Shown: positions 22,395 to 34,386 of the stretch, one piece after another | Layout: the number at the start of each line of letters is the position of its first letter | Position numbering within the stretch: the stretch's first letter is position 1 | Assembly (NCBI GenBank): GCA_020438295.1 | Contig: JAGQUV010000005.1 | Location: 1 to 64,000 of the forward strand | DNA length: 64,000 nucleotides | From: Solirubrobacterales bacterium | GTDB lineage: Bacteria; Actinomycetota; Thermoleophilia; Solirubrobacterales; 70-9 | Direction: 5' to 3' | The notes under the pieces: generated by a model | What the model saw: only the letters and a program-made list of their open reading frames with translations | What the model was told of the DNA's origin: nothing | Database searches by the model: none | Translations under genes and position numbers: made by a program

Positions 22395-23290
22395 GCCCGC
22401 TGACCGAGCCCAACCTGCTTCTGATCGTCAACCCGAGCGCCGGAACCGGTCGCTCCGCCCGGATCCTGCCCGAGGTGGAACGCAGGCTGGACGACCTGCG
22501 CCAGGTGTTCCGGGTCGAACGGACCCGTTCGCTGGAACACGGTATCGACCTGGCGCTGGACGCGATCGAGGCCCGCGAGATCCCGGTGGTGGTCAGCGGT
22601 GACGGGCTGATCGGCGCGATCGGCGGTGCAGTCGCCGGCTCGGCCGTCCCGATCGGGATCATCCCCGGAGGCCGGGGCAACGACCTGGCCAGGGGCCTCG
22701 GCATCCCCCTAGACCCGGCCGAAGCGGTCGACTGCCTGGTCGCCGGGCGGGTCAGGCGGATCGACGTCGGGGAGGCCAACGGCGAACGATTCCTCGGGAT
22801 CGCATCGGTCGGATTCGATTCCGAGGCCAACCGAATCGCCAACGAGGCCCGGCTCCTGAAAGGGAACCTCGTCTACGCGTACGCCGCGCTCAGGGCACTG
22901 GCCCGGTGGAAACCGGCCCGGTTCACCCTGGCCGAGGGAGAGATCCGGTCCCGCTTCACCGGCTACACGGTCGCCGTGGCCAACAACCGCTTCTACGGCG
23001 GGGGCATGATGGTCGCCCCCGAGGCCGAAATCGACGACGGGAAGTTCGACCTGATCACGGTCAGCGACAGCTCGAAAGTGCGCTTCCTGCTCAACCTGCC
23101 GAAGGTGTTCAAAGGGACGCACGTCGAGCTGGAGGACTCGGTCTCACAGCGCCGGGTCTCCCGTCTGGAGGTCAGCGCCAGCCGTCCGATGACCGTCTAT
23201 GCCGACGGCGACCCGCTGACCGAGCTCCCGGCACGGTTCAGGATCCTGCCGGAGGCGCTCGGGGTGATCGTGCCCGGGGACGAAGCTTGA
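22391..23290 (+). CDS. Diacylglycerol kinase-family lipid kinase
   Basis: 299 aa of the DAGK catalytic-domain family (DgkB/YegS type): LLIVNPSAGTGRSARILPEV at the N-terminus, PVVVSGDGLIGAIGGAV (equivalent of the GGDGT nucleotide loop, here SGDGL), IIPGGRGNDLARGLGIP, and C-terminal PMTVYADGDPLTELPARFRI. It phosphorylates a lipid alcohol such as diacylglycerol or a related substrate at the membrane. The SGDGL variant of the loop is unusual. It overlaps both neighbours by 4 nt (ATGA upstream, TTGA downstream). Confidence 0.85.
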   Translation: MSPLTEPNLLLIVNPSAGTGRSARILPEVERRLDDLRQVFRVERTRSLEHGIDLALDAIEAREIPVVVSGDGLIGAIGGAVAGSAVPIGIIPGGRGNDLARGLGIPLDPAEAVDCLVAGRVRRIDVGEANGERFLGIASVGFDSEANRIANEARLLKGNLVYAYAALRALARWKPARFTLAEGEIRSRFTGYTVAVANNRFYGGGMMVAPEAEIDDGKFDLITVSDSSKVRFLLNLPKVFKGTHVELEDSVSQRRVSRLEVSASRPMTVYADGDPLTELPARFRILPEALGVIVPGDEA

Positions 23291-24639
23291 TCCGGCTCAA
23301 GGCCGCTTTCGCCCGGCTGATCGGCCGTTTGATCCGCTTCACCGGCAGGGGTGGCGGAACTACGCTGCCGGGAAGGGTGCTGCTCAAGCTCGATCGCGAC
23401 GCGGTGGACAAACTCGGCGCCGGCCTGAGCGAAGGATCGACCCTGATCAGCGCGACCAACGGCAAGACCACCACCGCCTCCATGCTGGCCGTGATCCTCG
23501 CGGCCGAAGGCCGGCACCCGGTCCACAACCGCACCGGCTCGAACATGAACTGGGGCGTGGCCACCGCCCTGCTCGAACAGGACGGAGACGAAGGCCTGTT
23601 CGAGGTCGACGAGGCCTGGTTGGCCGAAACCGCATCACGGCTCGACCCCCACACCATTCTGCTGGCGAATCTCTTCCGCGACCAACTGGACCGATACGGG
23701 GAGACCGAGGCTCTGGCCGACGCCTGGCTCGGATTGGCCCGGGAACGGGCCGCGTCTACGACGTTCGTCCTCAACGCCGACGACCCGCTGGTCGCCGACA
23801 TCGGCCGGGCAAGCGGACCGGACACCAGCTATTTCGGGATCGAGGACGGTTCGGTGGCGTCGGCCGAGCTCCAGCACGCCAGCGACGCCAAGAACTGTCG
23901 CGTCTGCGGCGCCGAGCTCACCTACGAGCTGGCCTTCGTGGGCCATCTCGGCCACTACCGATGCCCCTCCTGCGGGATGGTACGCCCGGCACCCGAGGTC
24001 AGCGCCCACGAGGTCAGGCTCACCGGAATGACCGGACTCGGCGCCCGCATCCGGTCCCCGGAGGGGTCGGCCGAGCTCGAGCTGCCCCTGCCCGGGCTCT
24101 ACAACCTGTACAACGCGCTCGGCGCAATAGCCACCGCCCGGGCGCTGGGGATCCCGGTCGGGGCGGCGGTCGCGAGCCTCGCCTCGATGAAGGCCGTGTT
24201 CGGGCGGGTCGAGCGGATCCCGGTCGGCAGCACCGAGCTTTCGATCCTGCTGATCAAGAACCCGGCCGGTGCGAACGAGGTCCTGCGCACCCTCGCCCTG
24301 GAGCCGGAGCCGGTCGACCTCTGGGTCGGGCTGAACGACCGGATCGCCGATGGCCGTGACGTCTCCTGGATCTGGGACGCCGACTTCGAGGAGCTGGCCG
24401 ACCGGGTGCGATCGGTCGTCTGCGCCGGTACCAGGGCTCCGGAGATGGCGGTCCGCCTGAAGTACGCCGGCTGGCCCACCGAGCGGATCGAGGTGGTCGG
24501 TGAACTCGACCGCAGCCTGGAACGGGCATTGGAGGCGCGACCCGGCCGGCTGTTCGCACTGCCTACCTACACCGCCCTGCTCGAGCTTCGCCAGCTGCTC
24601 GCCGACCGCTACGACGCCGACCGTTACTGGCAAGGTTGA
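23287..24639 (+). CDS. murT: Lipid II isoglutaminyl synthase, MurT subunit
   Basis: 450-aa Mur-ligase-like ATPase that activates the D-Glu carboxylate of lipid II so GatD can amidate it. Central domain: ISATNGKTTTASML (P-loop about 55-62) and FEVDEAWL. A four-Cys zinc ribbon interrupts it (Cys204, Cys207, Cys226, Cys229: CRVCG…CPSCG), a hallmark of MurT. The C-terminal DUF1727 domain has LWVGLNDRIADGRDVSWIWDADFE, which contributes an Asp to the GatD active site in the known complex. Start TTG 23287 overlaps the previous stop (TTGA). Confidence 0.92.
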   Translation: MIRLKAAFARLIGRLIRFTGRGGGTTLPGRVLLKLDRDAVDKLGAGLSEGSTLISATNGKTTTASMLAVILAAEGRHPVHNRTGSNMNWGVATALLEQDGDEGLFEVDEAWLAETASRLDPHTILLANLFRDQLDRYGETEALADAWLGLARERAASTTFVLNADDPLVADIGRASGPDTSYFGIEDGSVASAELQHASDAKNCRVCGAELTYELAFVGHLGHYRCPSCGMVRPAPEVSAHEVRLTGMTGLGARIRSPEGSAELELPLPGLYNLYNALGAIATARALGIPVGAAVASLASMKAVFGRVERIPVGSTELSILLIKNPAGANEVLRTLALEPEPVDLWVGLNDRIADGRDVSWIWDADFEELADRVRSVVCAGTRAPEMAVRLKYAGWPTERIEVVGELDRSLERALEARPGRLFALPTYTALLELRQLLADRYDADRYWQG

Positions 24640-25392: not shown

Positions 25393-26130
25393 ATGCGACT
25401 TCGCCTGCTCAGTCTCTATCCGGACCAGATGAACATCTATGCCGACCGGGGGAACCTCACCTTCCTCCGCAAGCGCTGCGAATGGCGCGGGATCGGGTTC
25501 GAGCTGACCCGATGCGGCATCGGGGACCGGTTCGACCCGGAAGCGCACGACCTGATCTACATCGGCGGCGGTCAGGACCGCGACCAGAAAGCGGTCGCCG
25601 AGGACCTGGTCAGGAACAAGCGGGACCAGATGTTTCTGGCCCACGAAGGTGGCGCGGTGATCCTCGCGGTCTGCGGCGGATACCAGTTGCTGGGCCGCTC
25701 CTACCAGCTCGAGGACGAGCAGATCGAAGGCCTCGGCCTGGCCGGCCTCGAGACCGTTCGTGATCCAGGCCCGCGGCTGATCGGGCCGGTCTCGATCACG
25801 GTCGAGATCGACGACACCGAGCGGGTCGTCGCCGGCTTCGAGAACCATGGCGGCAGGACCTGGCTCGATCCCGGCTGCCGGCCGCTGGGAACGGTTCGCT
25901 CGGGCTACGGCAACAACGGAAAGGACGGCCTCGAAGGCGTCCGCGACGGAAATCTGATCGGGACATACCTGCATGGCCCGCTGCTCCCCAAGAATGCGTG
26001 GCTCGCCGACCACCTGATCGGACTGGCCCTCGAGCACGGCGGCAGCGGCCGGGTGGAGCTCGAACCTCTGGACGACCGGCTGGAGTCTGCCGCCCACCGG
26101 TCGGCGCTGAGCGCGGCCGACGCGCGCTGA
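25393..26130 (+). CDS. gatD: Lipid II isoglutaminyl synthase, glutamine amidotransferase subunit GatD
   Basis: 245-aa class I glutamine amidotransferase of the CobQ/CobB-like branch, partner of MurT. It hydrolyses glutamine and passes ammonia to MurT for amidation of the second stem residue of peptidoglycan. The nucleophile Cys94 is in AVCGGYQLLG and the His194 base in GTYLHGPLLPKN. PRLIG near 127-131 holds the substrate-binding Arg region of known GatD proteins. There is no ribosome site; a -10 box ends 6 nt before the ATG. It is separated from murT by one methyltransferase gene. Confidence 0.92.
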   Translation: MRLRLLSLYPDQMNIYADRGNLTFLRKRCEWRGIGFELTRCGIGDRFDPEAHDLIYIGGGQDRDQKAVAEDLVRNKRDQMFLAHEGGAVILAVCGGYQLLGRSYQLEDEQIEGLGLAGLETVRDPGPRLIGPVSITVEIDDTERVVAGFENHGGRTWLDPGCRPLGTVRSGYGNNGKDGLEGVRDGNLIGTYLHGPLLPKNAWLADHLIGLALEHGGSGRVELEPLDDRLESAAHRSALSAADAR

Positions 26131-30030: not shown

Positions 30031-31200
30031 TCAGGCCAGGTGTTCGCGCAGGCGCTCGAGCGCCTCGGTCAACCTGGAATCCGGGGTGGTCAGGGAGATC
30101 CGGAAGTACCCCTCGCCGCTCCGGCCGTACATCGACCCGGGCGAGACCACGACCGCCGCTTCTTCGAGGACCATCTCGGCGAACGAGGTCGAGCTGTGCC
30201 CGTCGGGAACCGGGGCCCAGACGTAGATCGTGCCTTTGGGCGAGGCGACGTCGACCCCGATCGCGCGCAGCGTCTCGACCACGAGATCCCGTCGCCTGGA
30301 ATAGATCGCGTTCATCTCGTCCAGCGGACCGCGCGGACCGGTGAGCGCGGCGGCCGCGGCCAGCTGGATCGCGTCGAAAAGGCCCGAATCGACGTTGGTC
30401 TTGAGTCGCCAGTAGGCCGAGATTGCGTCTGCGTTTCCGAGGATCGCCCCGACCCTCCAGCCGGTCATGTTGAAGCCCTTCGACAGCGAGAAGACCTCGA
30501 CTCCGACCTCTTTCGCACCATCGGTGGCCAGGAAGCTCGGGGCGACGTACCCGTCATAGGTCGTCTCGGAGTAGGCGTTGTCGTGCACGACCAGGATCTC
30601 GTTCTCCCGGGCGAACGCGACCACCTCCTCGAAGAACCCTTCGGGAACGACCGCTCCGCTGGGATTGTTCGGGTAGTTCAGGAACAGCAGACGCGCCCGC
30701 TCGCGGGTGAGCCGGTCGATCGCCCCGAGGTCGGGAGCGAAATCGCGCTTCGGCAGCAGCGGCAGCAGGACCACCTCGGCGCCGGCCAGGATCGGCCCGC
30801 CGGTGTAGACCGGGTAACCGGGATCGGAAGCCAGGGCGACGTCGCCCGGGTCCAGGAAGGCGAAGCAGAGGTTGTAGATGCATTCCTTGGCCCCGATCGC
30901 CGGGATTACCTCGGAGCCGGGGTCGATATCGACCCCGAATCGCTCGAGATAGAAATCGGAGAAAGCCTGGCGGAACTCCTCGCGACCCCGGTTGCTCGGG
31001 TACTTCTGGTTCGCGTTCTCGGCAACCGCGGCCTGCATCGCCTCCACAATGTGCGGATAGGTGGCCATGTCCGGGTCACCAATCCCGAGGCTGATCACAT
31101 CGATCCCGGCGGCCCGTTTGTCGGCGATCCGGCGTTCCAGCTCGGCGAACATGTACGGAGGCATCGCCTCGAGTCTTTTGGATGGGTCTGTGAGCGCCAA
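30031..31200 (-). CDS. dapL: LL-diaminopimelate aminotransferase
   Basis: 389-aa class I/II PLP aminotransferase converting tetrahydrodipicolinate directly to LL-diaminopimelate with glutamate, bypassing DapC/D/E. The pattern LGIGDPDMATYPHIVEAM, YPSNRGREEFRQAF, NYPNNPSGAV and the PLP lysine in SLSKGFNMTGWRVG are those of DapL. Start TTG 31200 lies behind AGGAGGAGAACAG. dapF is directly upstream in the same transcript (63-nt gap), as expected since DapF uses the product. No dapC, dapD or dapE gene is in the window. Confidence 0.88.
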   Translation of the reverse strand: MALTDPSKRLEAMPPYMFAELERRIADKRAAGIDVISLGIGDPDMATYPHIVEAMQAAVAENANQKYPSNRGREEFRQAFSDFYLERFGVDIDPGSEVIPAIGAKECIYNLCFAFLDPGDVALASDPGYPVYTGGPILAGAEVVLLPLLPKRDFAPDLGAIDRLTRERARLLFLNYPNNPSGAVVPEGFFEEVVAFARENEILVVHDNAYSETTYDGYVAPSFLATDGAKEVGVEVFSLSKGFNMTGWRVGAILGNADAISAYWRLKTNVDSGLFDAIQLAAAAALTGPRGPLDEMNAIYSRRRDLVVETLRAIGVDVASPKGTIYVWAPVPDGHSSTSFAEMVLEEAAVVVSPGSMYGRSGEGYFRISLTTPDSRLTEALERLREHLA

Positions 31201-31263: not shown

Positions 31264-32109
31264 TCAATCCGGGATTCCGTCCAGCGACTCGATCATCTCC
31301 GGGGAAAACCGGCCACTCAGGATCGGTTCCGCCCAACCGCTCAGGGTCACGTCGAGTTCCGGGCTTATCTCCACCTGGAGCTCGCCCCCGTCGAGCTCGA
31401 CCGTGACCGGGCTCTCGGCGCCGGAGAGGAATGCGGCCACCGCCGCGCCGGTGGCCCCGGTGCCGGACGAAAGAGTCTCACCGACGCCCCGCTCGAAGAT
31501 CCGGGCCCTGACCCGTGAGCCCGAAGCCCGGAAGAACGAGACGTTGGTGCGGTTCGGGAACAGCTCGCTATTCTCGATGGACGGCCCCAGCAGCTCCAGG
31601 TCCAGCTCCTCCAGCCCCGAACCGACCTCGATCGCGCACTGCGGGTTGCCGATCGAAACATGCCGGAACGACCAGTCCTGGCCTCCCGAATTGACCGTAC
31701 CCCGGCCGTCGCTGTCGCCGCTCGGGTAGTCGTCCGATTCGGTCGTGGCGCGGCCGAGTTCCACCGAACAGGTGCGCTCGGAAGTGATCGTAGGGGTCAC
31801 CGGGCCCGACTCGGTAAGGATCGTGAACGAGTCCAGGTCGGTCCAGCCGTGCCGCCTGAGGTAGAGGATCGCCTCCCGCGCACCGTTCCCCGACAGCTCG
31901 GCCTCCGATCCGTCCGGGTTGAAAATCCGCAGCCCGGCGACGTAGTCGGGCTGGTCGCTGGCCGAGATCAGCAGGATCCCGTCGGAGCCGACGCCGAAGT
32001 GGGGATCGCAGATCCGCTGGATCCGCTGCTGGGTCAGGTCCCACGGCAGTACCTCCTGCTCGAGGATCACGTAGTCGTTCCCCAGGGCTTGCCATTTCTC
32101 GAACTTCAT
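31264..32109 (-). CDS. dapF: Diaminopimelate epimerase-family protein with Ser in place of both catalytic Cys
   Basis: 281 aa, DapF fold: KFEKWQALGNDYVILE at the N-terminus, FNPDGSEAELSGNGAREAILYLRR and GVGETLSSGTGATGAAVA in the second half. In characterised DapF these two blocks read CGNGAR and CGTGA, each with a catalytic Cys. Here both are Ser (Ser73 and Ser215), and the codons (TCG, TCC) are unambiguous. The rest of the active site, including GNPQ and ERGVGET, is intact. It may epimerise by a modified mechanism, act on another substrate, or be supported by another enzyme. ATG 32109 is preferred to TTG 32121. Confidence 0.88.
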   Translation of the reverse strand: MKFEKWQALGNDYVILEQEVLPWDLTQQRIQRICDPHFGVGSDGILLISASDQPDYVAGLRIFNPDGSEAELSGNGAREAILYLRRHGWTDLDSFTILTESGPVTPTITSERTCSVELGRATTESDDYPSGDSDGRGTVNSGGQDWSFRHVSIGNPQCAIEVGSGLEELDLELLGPSIENSELFPNRTNVSFFRASGSRVRARIFERGVGETLSSGTGATGAAVAAFLSGAESPVTVELDGGELQVEISPELDVTLSGWAEPILSGRFSPEMIESLDGIPD

Positions 32110-32122
32110 CCGGACTGCCAAC

Positions 32123-33067
32123 CTACCCAGTCGCCCGGATCCGACGCGGTCCGGTGGTCCGGCTGTCGGCCAGCCCGATCACCTCGGCGGCCAGCTCGCG
32201 GTCGTCGCGTCCGCCCCGTTCGAAGACCTCGACCCCGTCCATGCGCCGCATCCAGGTCATCTGCCGTCTGCCGTATCGCCGGTGCAGCGAGATCACCTTG
32301 TCCAGGTCGCCGTCGATGAACTCGTGGAACCCGAGCGCCGCGCGGGCCGTGCGCGATGCTCCGGCGGCCAGCGCGGCTGCCGCTTCCTCTGCCGCCCCGG
32401 CCTGGGCCATCAGATCAACCCGTTCCCTGATCCGGGCGGTCAGGTTCTCGTCGGAATCGGTGATCCCGGCAAGCACGGCCGGCCGTCTCAGGTGCGAGGT
32501 CCAGAGCTCTCCGCCACCGACGTGGTCGGGCGCCGGCTCCTGCCCGTCCCGCAGTAGCTCGGTCGCGCGGGCTACGCGCTGGCTGTCGTTCCGGTGGATC
32601 GATCCCCGGAGCCGCTCCGGGAGCTCTTTGTGCATGGCCGCCGAACCACGCCGTTCGAGCTCCGACTCGACCTCGATCCGGATCCGCTCTGGGACCGGCG
32701 AGCGAAGATCGATTTCGGTCAACGCGGCGCGCAGGTAGAGCCCGGTACCGCCGACCAGGATCGGGCGACGGCCTTGGTCCAGCGCGGCGTCGATCTCGGC
32801 CTGGGCCAGCTCGGCATAGCGGCCGGCGCTGAACTGCCGGTCGACCGGGACGAACCCCAGCAGCCTGTGCTCGAGCTCGGCCCGCTGTTCTGCGGTCGCG
32901 GCCCCGCTCAGTACCTCCAGGCCGCGGTATACCTGGATCGCGTCGCAGTTGACCGCAACTGGATGCTCACCCCTGGCCCTCAGCTGCCTGGCGATCTCGA
33001 CAGCCACCCCGGTCTTGCCGGTCCCGGTCGGGCCGAACAGCGCGATCAGCACCGGCCCGGCGCTCAA
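32123..33067 (-). CDS. miaA: tRNA dimethylallyltransferase
   Basis: 314-aa enzyme adding a dimethylallyl group to N6 of A37 in tRNAs reading UNN codons. The P-loop LFGPTGTGKTGVAVEIA (9-25), the DAIQVYRGLEVLSGAAT substrate segment, GGTGLYLRAAL and the C-terminal RYGRRQMTWMRRM are family landmarks. The second threonine of the family's usual GPTASGKT loop is replaced by the GTGKT form. Start TTG 33067 overlaps the miaB stop (TTGA), so MiaA is made with MiaB, the enzyme acting on its product. Confidence 0.93.
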   Translation of the reverse strand: MSAGPVLIALFGPTGTGKTGVAVEIARQLRARGEHPVAVNCDAIQVYRGLEVLSGAATAEQRAELEHRLLGFVPVDRQFSAGRYAELAQAEIDAALDQGRRPILVGGTGLYLRAALTEIDLRSPVPERIRIEVESELERRGSAAMHKELPERLRGSIHRNDSQRVARATELLRDGQEPAPDHVGGGELWTSHLRRPAVLAGITDSDENLTARIRERVDLMAQAGAAEEAAAALAAGASRTARAALGFHEFIDGDLDKVISLHRRYGRRQMTWMRRMDGVEVFERGGRDDRELAAEVIGLADSRTTGPRRIRATG

Positions 33068-34386
33068 GCTCCGATACCGCTCAGCAGGCGTTCGTTGCCG
33101 GAAAGCGTTTGCGAGGTAGCCGCCTCAATCTCGACCTCAACCAGTTTCCCGGGTTCGGCCGCGCCCTCGAAGTTGACCGCCTTGTTGTGACGGCTCCTGC
33201 CCCGCAGCCGAGTCGGGTCGCTGCGGCTCGGCCCCTCGACCAGGACCTCCATCGACCTGCCGACGAAGCGCTGCGCCCGCTCCCTGGCGCGCTCCTGCAC
33301 CAGGTCGACCAGTTCCGCCATCCTCTCCTTCTTGACCGGGTGGGGAACCTGTCCGTCCATATCCGCGGCCGCCGTCCCCCGCCGGGGCGAGTAGCCGAAG
33401 GTGAACGCGCCGTCATAGCCGACCCGGTCCACGACTTCGAGCGTCTGCCGGAAGTCCCGGTCGGTCTCGCCGGGGAAGCCGACGATGATGTCGGTGGTCA
33501 GGCCGCAGTCGGGGATGCGCTCCCGGATCATCGCGACCCGGTCGAGATAGCGCTCGCGGTCGTAGGTGCGCCGCATCTTCTTAAGGATGGTGCTCGACCC
33601 GGACTGCAGCGGCAGGTGGATGTGCTCGCAGAGCGCCGGAAGCTCGGCGTGGGCCTCGATCACGTCCTCTCGCATGTCCTTCGGATGGGGGCTCGTGTAG
33701 CGGATGCGCTCGATCCCTTCAACCGAGTCGATCCGGCGCAGGAGGTCCGAAAACCGGATCCGGCTAGCGGACGGCAGGTCCCGGCCATAGCTGTTCACGT
33801 TCTGGCCCAGCAGCGTGACCTCGCGGACGCCGTCGGCGGCCAGCCTCTCGACCTCTTCGACCAGCAGCGACGGGTCGCGGCTCTGCTCGCGGCCCCGGGT
33901 CGACGGCACGATGCAGTAGGTGCAGACGCAGTTGCAGCCCTGGGAGATCTGCAGCCAGCCCTGGAACGGGCGGGCACGGTTCGCCGGCAGGTCGCCGGCG
34001 AACTCCTCGAACTCGAAGTAGCCCTGGGCGGTGATCGAATCGGAGTTCAGGAACTCGGCCAGGCGGTGGATCTGGCCCGGTCCGAAAGCCACGTCCACGA
34101 ACGGGAACCGCCGGAACACCTCCTCCTTGACCGACTGTGCCCAGCAGCCTCCCACCCCGACCACGCGGGCCGGGTCTTCGCCCTTCAGCCGCTTGGCCTC
34201 CCCGAGGTGGGAGATGAACCGGTTGTCGGCGTTTTCACGGATCGAACAGGTGTTGAACAAGATCAGGTCGGCCTGCTCGCGGCGCTCGACCTCCTCGTAA
34301 CCGAGCGAGGTCAGCATCCCTTTCATCCGCTCGGAGTCGTGCTCGTTCATCTGGCACCCGAACGTGGTCACGTGGAACCGCTTCAT
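33064..34386 (-). CDS. miaB: tRNA-2-methylthio-N6-dimethylallyladenosine synthase
   Basis: 440-aa radical-SAM methylthiotransferase adding a methylthio group at A37 after MiaA. The N-terminal UPF0004 domain binds an auxiliary Fe-S cluster through Cys11, Cys47 and Cys81. The radical-SAM cluster uses CNCVCTYC (Cys151, Cys155, Cys158). A TRAM domain lies at the C-terminus (RFVGRSMEVLVEG…LVEVEI). The ATG has a leaderless -10 box and starts the miaB-miaA-dapF-dapL operon. Confidence 0.95.
   Translation of the reverse strand: MKRFHVTTFGCQMNEHDSERMKGMLTSLGYEEVERREQADLILFNTCSIRENADNRFISHLGEAKRLKGEDPARVVGVGGCWAQSVKEEVFRRFPFVDVAFGPGQIHRLAEFLNSDSITAQGYFEFEEFAGDLPANRARPFQGWLQISQGCNCVCTYCIVPSTRGREQSRDPSLLVEEVERLAADGVREVTLLGQNVNSYGRDLPSASRIRFSDLLRRIDSVEGIERIRYTSPHPKDMREDVIEAHAELPALCEHIHLPLQSGSSTILKKMRRTYDRERYLDRVAMIRERIPDCGLTTDIIVGFPGETDRDFRQTLEVVDRVGYDGAFTFGYSPRRGTAAADMDGQVPHPVKKERMAELVDLVQERARERAQRFVGRSMEVLVEGPSRSDPTRLRGRSRHNKAVNFEGAAEPGKLVEVEIEAATSQTLSGNERLLSGIGA

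What the first reader, a model, noticed from the sequence alone, without database searches (positions are those of the whole stretch)
31264..32109. DapF with both catalytic cysteines replaced by serine
Seen: the two active-site blocks read ELSGNGAREA (Ser73) and LSSGTGATGA (Ser215). Known: in characterised diaminopimelate epimerases both positions are the Cys pair that removes and donates the alpha proton. Inference: either a Ser/Ser epimerase with a shifted mechanism, a change of substrate, or an inactive paralogue. The gene is otherwise intact and sits beside dapL, which makes its substrate LL-DAP. I recall similar sequences in Thermoleophilia, which would make it lineage-wide.
Basis: partly seen in the sequence, partly recalled or inferred. 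Interest (0 to 1): 0.85.

Follow-up and report, generated by a model that had tools for sequence, protein, structure and literature searches.

The report
DAP epimerase with two catalytic serines
An essential cell-wall and lysine enzyme (DapF), known for its two catalytic cysteines, carries serine at both places here and in large branches of at least four bacterial phyla that still appear to depend on it, so either serine can do this difficult chemistry or the textbook mechanism is incomplete.

Summary
The gene at 31264-32109 (-) encodes a full-length DapF with Ser73 and Ser215 where characterised enzymes have the catalytic Cys pair. It does not look like a pseudogene or paralogue: it is the genome's only detected DapF, under purifying selection, in a conserved miaB-miaA-dapF-dapL cluster, with every DAP-contacting residue kept. 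All 60-odd DapFs I read from its order (Solirubrobacterales) are Ser/Ser. Conexibacter woesei (closed genome, wall shown to contain meso-DAP) has only a Ser/Ser DapF, a LysA and no DAP dehydrogenase above cut-off. So these proteins very probably make meso-DAP. The state changed at least five times, nearly always at both sites; 7 of 316 distinct sequences are mixed. No other residue change is shared by all Ser/Ser clades. Best reading: an active DAP epimerase with a Ser/Ser acid-base pair, although engineered Cys-to-Ser mutants of relatives are nearly dead. I found no solved natural Ser/Ser DapF and no description in the open-licence papers searched. Activity and the serines' role are inferred, not shown.

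The parts
31264..32109 (-). dapF, Ser/Ser-type diaminopimelate epimerase, 281 aa from ATG (frame open to a TTG at 32121)
31891..31893 (-). Ser73 codon (TCG), at the place of the first catalytic Cys
   Evidence: sequence; alignment
31465..31467 (-). Ser215 codon (TCC), at the place of the second catalytic Cys
   Evidence: sequence; alignment
30031..31200 (-). dapL, LL-diaminopimelate aminotransferase, makes the substrate
   Evidence: NF006756 528.6 bits over cut-off 507; adjacency kept in relatives
32123..33067 (-). miaA, upstream neighbour, part of the conserved gene order
   Evidence: TIGR00174 135.8 bits, a little under its cut-off
33064..34386 (-). miaB, part of the conserved gene order
   Evidence: TIGR01574 496.7 bits

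Best explanation
This is the organism's working diaminopimelate epimerase. It takes the LL-DAP made by the neighbouring DapL and inverts one alpha-carbon to give meso-DAP for the wall (MurE) and for lysine (LysA). [quoted passage not shown] Shown here: the Ser pair, its invariance, sole-copy status in sampled genomes, retained DAP-contacting residues, and repeated paired switching between Cys/Cys and Ser/Ser. Inferred: that the protein is active, and that the two serines themselves are the acid and the base.
For: (1) Sole candidate in a meso-DAP maker. G206 is one contig of 6,359,369 bases, exactly the published length of the Conexibacter woesei genome; that paper reports peptidoglycan type A1gamma with meso-DAP and calls meso-DAP diagnostic for all Solirubrobacterales (PMC3035278). 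G206 has one DapF, Ser/Ser, LysA over cut-off, no DAP dehydrogenase over cut-off, and MurE over cut-off with the DNPR motif that I recall for DAP-adding MurE. Solirubrobacter cells also contain meso-DAP (PMC10722151). (2) Fifteen Ser/Ser genomes of the class, nine single-contig: one DapF each, LysA in all, no DAP dehydrogenase over cut-off in any. In other phyla 10 of 11 Ser/Ser genomes have a single DapF, and LysA is over cut-off in 12 of 14. (3) Residues that contact both ends of DAP (Asn15, Asn68, Asn193, Glu210, Arg211; Asn159 outside one three-member clade; Asn79 at 88-100%) are conserved in the Ser/Ser clades; PddB, which left DAP for another substrate, lost the distal ones (PMC8225329). 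(4) Purifying selection, dN/dS 0.04-0.23. (5) The gene order miaB-miaA-dapF-dapL is shared by Ser/Ser and Cys/Cys Thermoleophilia: replacement in place. (6) Both sites move together: 171 Ser/Ser, 138 Cys/Cys, 5 Ser/Cys, 2 Cys/Ser; in 6 independent pairs the second site follows in about 5 and never opposes (p 0.06). The replacement is always Ser, never another residue, which points to a role for the hydroxyl.
Against: Engineered Cys-to-Ser changes nearly kill relatives: under 0.1% left in PddB, with the same reported for M. tuberculosis DapF (PMC8225329); HisR C67S and C209S greatly reduced (PMC11602996). Ser has a much higher pKa, which a review gives as a reason why Cys is favoured (PMC8142540). 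No residue change other than the two Ser is common to all Ser/Ser clades, so no compensating group is visible. I found no assay of a natural Ser/Ser DapF. An unrecognised racemase in these genomes is not excluded.
Confidence: 0.72

Rival explanations
1. It is an active DAP epimerase, but the serines only position the substrate or a water; another group (a water, the substrate's own amine, or a conserved residue such as Cys38) moves the proton.
For: Ser is a poor base and single Cys-to-Ser mutants of relatives are nearly inactive (PMC8225329). Cys38 is 98-100% conserved in Ser/Ser clades but only about 50% in Cys/Cys DapFs outside the class.
Against: Cys38 is also conserved in the Cys/Cys DapFs of the same class (97%) and is replaced by Ser in 2% of one Ser/Ser clade. 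No new acid or base is shared by all Ser/Ser clades. Both faces switch together and always to Ser, which suggests that the hydroxyls matter.
Confidence: 0.15
2. Inactive or moonlighting protein: the fold is kept for a non-catalytic role (E. coli DapF is known to bind RppH), and an unrecognised racemase makes meso-DAP.
For: Loss of both catalytic thiols; nearly dead Ser mutants in relatives. RppH-DapF complexes exist in the PDB (6d13, 6vck). Unknown PLP racemases were not searched for.
Against: Substrate-contact residues stay conserved over four phyla, which a non-catalytic role would not require. The gene stays next to dapL. The same replacement happened several times. No DAP dehydrogenase over cut-off in 15 genomes.
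Confidence: 0.07
3. The protein changed substrate or reaction (another amino-acid racemase, or an elimination as in Ser/Thr hydroxyproline dehydratases).
For: In the proline racemase superfamily a catalytic Ser with Thr goes with dehydration (PMC4113996); DapF relatives with other substrates exist (PddB, HisR, O-ureidoserine racemase).
Against: The distal-carboxylate contacts lost in PddB are all kept. LL-DAP has no beta-hydroxyl to eliminate. The organisms would then lack any recognised DAP epimerase although the order has meso-DAP walls.
Confidence: 0.06

Closest known systems
Diaminopimelate epimerase DapF (EC 5.1.1.7), Cys/Cys type (H. influenzae, E. coli, A. thaliana, Anabaena)
   Same: Two-domain fold (Z 31-37 over 259-276 residues for most DapF chains), DAP-contacting residues, gene neighbourhood in related lineages, family models over cut-off
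   Different: Both catalytic Cys are Ser; expected to be blind to thiol chemistry
Engineered C73S and C217S H. influenzae DapF (2q9h, 2q9j)
   Same: Same fold with Ser at one of the two positions
   Different: Made in the laboratory, one site only; such mutations hinder catalysis (PMC12039745)
Proline racemase superfamily members with Ser/Cys (4-hydroxyproline 2-epimerase B9JQV3) or Ser/Thr (trans-3-hydroxyproline dehydratase B9K4G4)
   Same: Related fold (4lb0 Z 25.4, 4k7g Z 25.6); natural Ser as a catalytic residue; the Ser/Cys enzyme still epimerises (PMC4113996)
   Different: The epimerase has only one Ser, its partner is Cys; different substrate; 13% identity
Aspartate/glutamate racemases with Cys/Thr (EcL-DER, MMP0739)
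   Same: A cofactor-independent racemase with one Cys replaced by a hydroxyl residue (PMC8142540)
   Different: Different enzyme family; one Cys remains; EcL-DER works in one direction and MMP0739 is predicted to
C. glutamicum DapF with redox switch
   Same: Homologous enzyme in another Actinomycetota lineage
   Different: Its two catalytic Cys form a disulfide under H2O2 and activity is lost (PMC5296763); a Ser/Ser enzyme cannot do this

Membership tests
DapF (diaminopimelate epimerase) | Matches the curated family model over its cut-off across the full length | tested here: met
   TIGR00652 185.5 bits vs 114.65, residues 5-271 to profile 1-267 of 270; PF01678, two stretches
DapF (diaminopimelate epimerase) | Two-domain DapF fold | tested here: met
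   Model pLDDT 96.5; best matches are DapF structures, Z up to 37
DapF (diaminopimelate epimerase) | Pair of catalytic Cys, one on each face of the substrate | tested here: not met
   Ser/Ser. I therefore file it as a variant type of DapF by descent, not as an ordinary member by mechanism
DapF (diaminopimelate epimerase) | Residues that bind both ends of DAP (Asn11, Asn64, Asn75, Asn157, Asn190, Glu208, Arg209 of H. influenzae) | tested here: met
   All present in the window protein and conserved in its order (roles from PMC8225329). Gln44 is Gly here, as in about half of the Cys/Cys DapFs outside the class
DapF (diaminopimelate epimerase) | Orthology: same locus and tree position among Cys/Cys DapFs | tested here: met
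   Nested among Thermoleophilia DapFs; same gene order in Cys/Cys relatives
DapF (diaminopimelate epimerase) | Interconverts LL-DAP and meso-DAP | not testable with these tools
   Indirect only: sole candidate in organisms with meso-DAP walls
Proline racemase superfamily (Ser/Cys and Ser/Thr types) | Sequence match to that family rather than DapF | tested here: not met
   Pfam scan gives only PF01678; 11-18% identity to proline-racemase structures
Non-DAP racemases of DapF type (PddB) | Loss of the distal DAP-carboxylate contacts | tested here: not met
   Asn68, Asn159, Asn193 and Arg211 all present in the window protein and its order

The most novel reading that the evidence does not exclude
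A cofactor-free amino-acid epimerase that runs two-base proton transfer with two serine hydroxyls, reached several times in evolution by paired exchange of both catalytic residues, and the only route to meso-DAP in large parts of Acidobacteriota, Nitrospirota, Chloroflexota and the order Solirubrobacterales.
Probability: 0.65. Interest if true: 0.87.

Novelty: new variant of a known kind. Interest (0 to 1): 0.76.

Why it matters
The DapF mechanism is a textbook case: a thiolate must deprotonate a very weak carbon acid, and Cys-to-Ser mutants are used as near-dead forms for crystals. Natural Ser/Ser enzymes that appear to be the sole epimerase of whole lineages say that something other than the thiol does much of the work. 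They give a direct way to ask what: wild type, S-to-C and S-to-A versions of one protein, and Cys/Cys orthologues from sister families at the same locus. It also matters in practice. DapF is a proposed drug target through thiol-reactive inhibitors such as aziridino-DAP, and C. glutamicum DapF is shut off by H2O2 through a disulfide (PMC5296763); Ser/Ser enzymes should escape both. Annotation that demands the Cys pair would wrongly call these organisms unable to make meso-DAP.

Tried and rejected
Second DapF in the own genome: none found, though the assembly is 87% complete. Stop codons reported inside some relatives (TGA in G115/G145) as possible selenocysteine at the catalytic site: rejected, the TGA is not at either catalytic codon; these are plain Ser. 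DAP dehydrogenase as a bypass: no match over cut-off in 15 genomes, only weak partial hits. A compensating residue common to all Ser/Ser clades: searched over all aligned positions, none found. All Ser/Ser DapFs as one clade: rejected by the AU test (p 8e-57); one Ser/Ser clade within Thermoleophilia is not rejected (p 0.18), and one gain followed by several reversals to Cys/Cys cannot be ruled out. Nitrospira defluvii paper for a size match to G424: not held. Literature: ten searches of the open-licence library found no description of a natural Ser/Ser DapF; subscription papers, UniProt and HAMAP notes were not available, so someone may have remarked on it. MurE of the own genome was not found over cut-off, perhaps an assembly gap. 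Model coordinates are not exposed by the tools, so no distances were measured.

Full report
What is there. The window's minus strand holds dapF at 31264-32109 (ATG start, 281 aa; the frame extends to a TTG at 32121, 285 aa), between miaA and dapL. Residue numbers below use the 285-aa form unless stated. The two motifs read AELSGNGAR and GETLSSGTGA. In alignments to solved DapFs the two serines sit on the catalytic cysteines. Family models are passed comfortably. The AlphaFold2 model is confident (pLDDT 96.5, pTM 0.92) and its best matches are DapF structures, among them ones with bound substrate analogues or product (9mro, 3ejx, 5m47).

How far it reaches. In the class sample 139 of 149 genomes have a DapF. 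Every DapF read from the own family and from the other three families of the order is Ser/Ser. Family f7 of the class is also Ser/Ser; f5, f6, f8 and f10 are Cys/Cys; f9 is Cys/Cys except for one genus with Ser/Cys. Named loci place the order as Solirubrobacterales (Patulibacter americanus DSM 16676, Conexibacter sp., Solirubrobacter sp.). The same scan turned up Ser/Ser DapFs in Nitrospira and other Nitrospirota, a Chloroflexi, a Latescibacteria, a Deltaproteobacteria and an Acidobacteria bin. Surveys of three phyla confirmed this. Acidobacteriota: 58 Ser/Ser, 10 Cys/Cys and 2 Cys/Ser among 70 loci read. Nitrospirota: the 23 best-matching survey loci are all Ser/Ser, the lower-scoring ones nearly all Cys/Cys. 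Chloroflexota: 11 Ser/Ser and 19 Cys/Cys, the query locus included. These searches were seeded with Ser/Ser proteins, so they show reach, not prevalence. Over all distinct sequences in the tree set: 171 Ser/Ser, 138 Cys/Cys, 5 Ser/Cys, 2 Cys/Ser.

Evolution. A maximum-likelihood tree of 122 representatives, built without the two catalytic columns, needs five changes of the Ser/Ser label on well-supported branches. One clade for all Ser/Ser rows is rejected (p 8e-57). Within Thermoleophilia a single Ser/Ser clade is not rejected (p 0.18). Whether there were five gains, or fewer gains with reversals to Cys/Cys, is open. Site 1 is mostly an AGC codon in the Nitrospirota-Chloroflexota clade and TCN elsewhere, which fits separate origins. 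In independent pairs the two sites change together in about five of six and never in opposite directions (p 0.06). Constraint on the protein is strong: dN/dS 0.04 to 0.23 in nine pairs, some with saturated synonymous sites.

Is it working? The strongest case is Conexibacter woesei. I identify genome G206 with it because its single contig is 6,359,369 bases, the published length. Its wall is A1gamma with meso-DAP, and the paper states the same diamino acid for all Solirubrobacterales (PMC3035278). Its only DapF is Ser/Ser, it has LysA, and it has no DAP dehydrogenase over cut-off. Fourteen further Ser/Ser genomes of the class, the window's own and eight single-contig ones among them, show the same pattern of one DapF, LysA and no DAP dehydrogenase. 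Outside the class, 10 of 11 Ser/Ser genomes have one DapF, and 12 of 14 have LysA over cut-off. The residues that bind DAP in the H. influenzae structure are kept, including the distal-carboxylate contacts that PddB lost when it left DAP (PMC8225329). The gene sits in the same miaB-miaA-dapF-dapL order as the Cys/Cys orthologues of sister families. I conclude that the protein is the DAP epimerase of its organism; this is inference, not assay.

How it would work. The simplest scheme keeps the DapF cycle (closure on LL-DAP, proton removal on one face, return on the other) with Ser73 and Ser215 (ATG numbering) as acid and base. Against this stands the chemistry: Ser is a much weaker acid than Cys, and Cys-to-Ser mutants of relatives are nearly dead (PMC8225329; PMC11602996). 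In its favour, the replacement is always Ser and never Ala, Gly or Asn; both faces switch together; and in the related proline racemase group a natural Ser/Cys pair does epimerise 4-hydroxyproline (PMC4113996). No further residue change is common to all Ser/Ser clades. Either the active site needs little adjustment, for instance because the closed, dry pocket and the protonated substrate amine do most of the work, or each clade found its own. A possible reason for the switch is escape from oxidation: C. glutamicum DapF loses activity to H2O2 through a disulfide between its two catalytic Cys (PMC5296763). This is a hypothesis; I did not test a link with oxygen use.

What is known. The solved DapFs matched are Cys/Cys or engineered single mutants, as far as their titles and the alignments shown tell. 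A 2021 review of proton-transfer racemases names Cys/Cys as the rule and Cys/Thr as exceptions among cofactor-independent amino-acid racemases; the passages I read name no Ser/Ser case (PMC8142540). The paper searches found no description of a natural Ser/Ser DapF, but they covered open-licence papers only. I rate it a new variant of a known kind: DapF by descent, fold, substrate contacts and context, with the defining catalytic pair replaced.

Limits. The own genome is an 87%-complete assembly in 165 contigs. A few carry extra DapF copies: Nitrospirota G243, G376 and G394 carry a distant Cys/Cys copy beside the Ser/Ser one, and the MAG G180 of the own order has a divergent Cys-containing copy. 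Activity, the role of the two serines and the geometry of the pocket were not measured.

Noticed in passing
window 22906-24639 (+) and 25393-26130 (+): A MurT-type ligase (MurT_C) and a GATase_3 amidotransferase, the kind of pair that amidates D-Glu of lipid II, lie a few kb from dapL-dapF; suggests amidated peptidoglycan.
   Followed up: partly
L285 (G258), L287 (G287); L281, L284, L289: A divergent DapF branch in Acidobacteriota ('YERGVE' motif) holds Cys/Ser pairs and a separate small Ser/Ser clade; these rows have Val at the position of the DAP-contacting Asn157.
   Followed up: partly
L007, L009, L019, L021, L026 (family f9 of the class): A natural Ser/Cys DapF group nested among Cys/Cys relatives: an intermediate or an alternative end state.
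   Followed up: partly
G243 (L248, L314), G376 (L249, L313), G394 (L250, L358): Three Nitrospirota genomes carry a distant Cys/Cys DapF besides the Ser/Ser one, next to lysA in G376: a natural two-copy comparison.
   Followed up: partly
G397 (L237, L312): A Nitrospirota genome with two DapF genes, both Ser/Ser.
   Followed up: no
G016, G028, G064, G089 (class of the window): Genomes at least 96% complete in which no DapF was found at all; how they make meso-DAP, if they do, is unexplained.
   Followed up: no
L315 (G180:C165): An extra, very divergent DapF-like gene with Cys at both sites in one MAG of the window's order (4% contamination); may be foreign.
   Followed up: no
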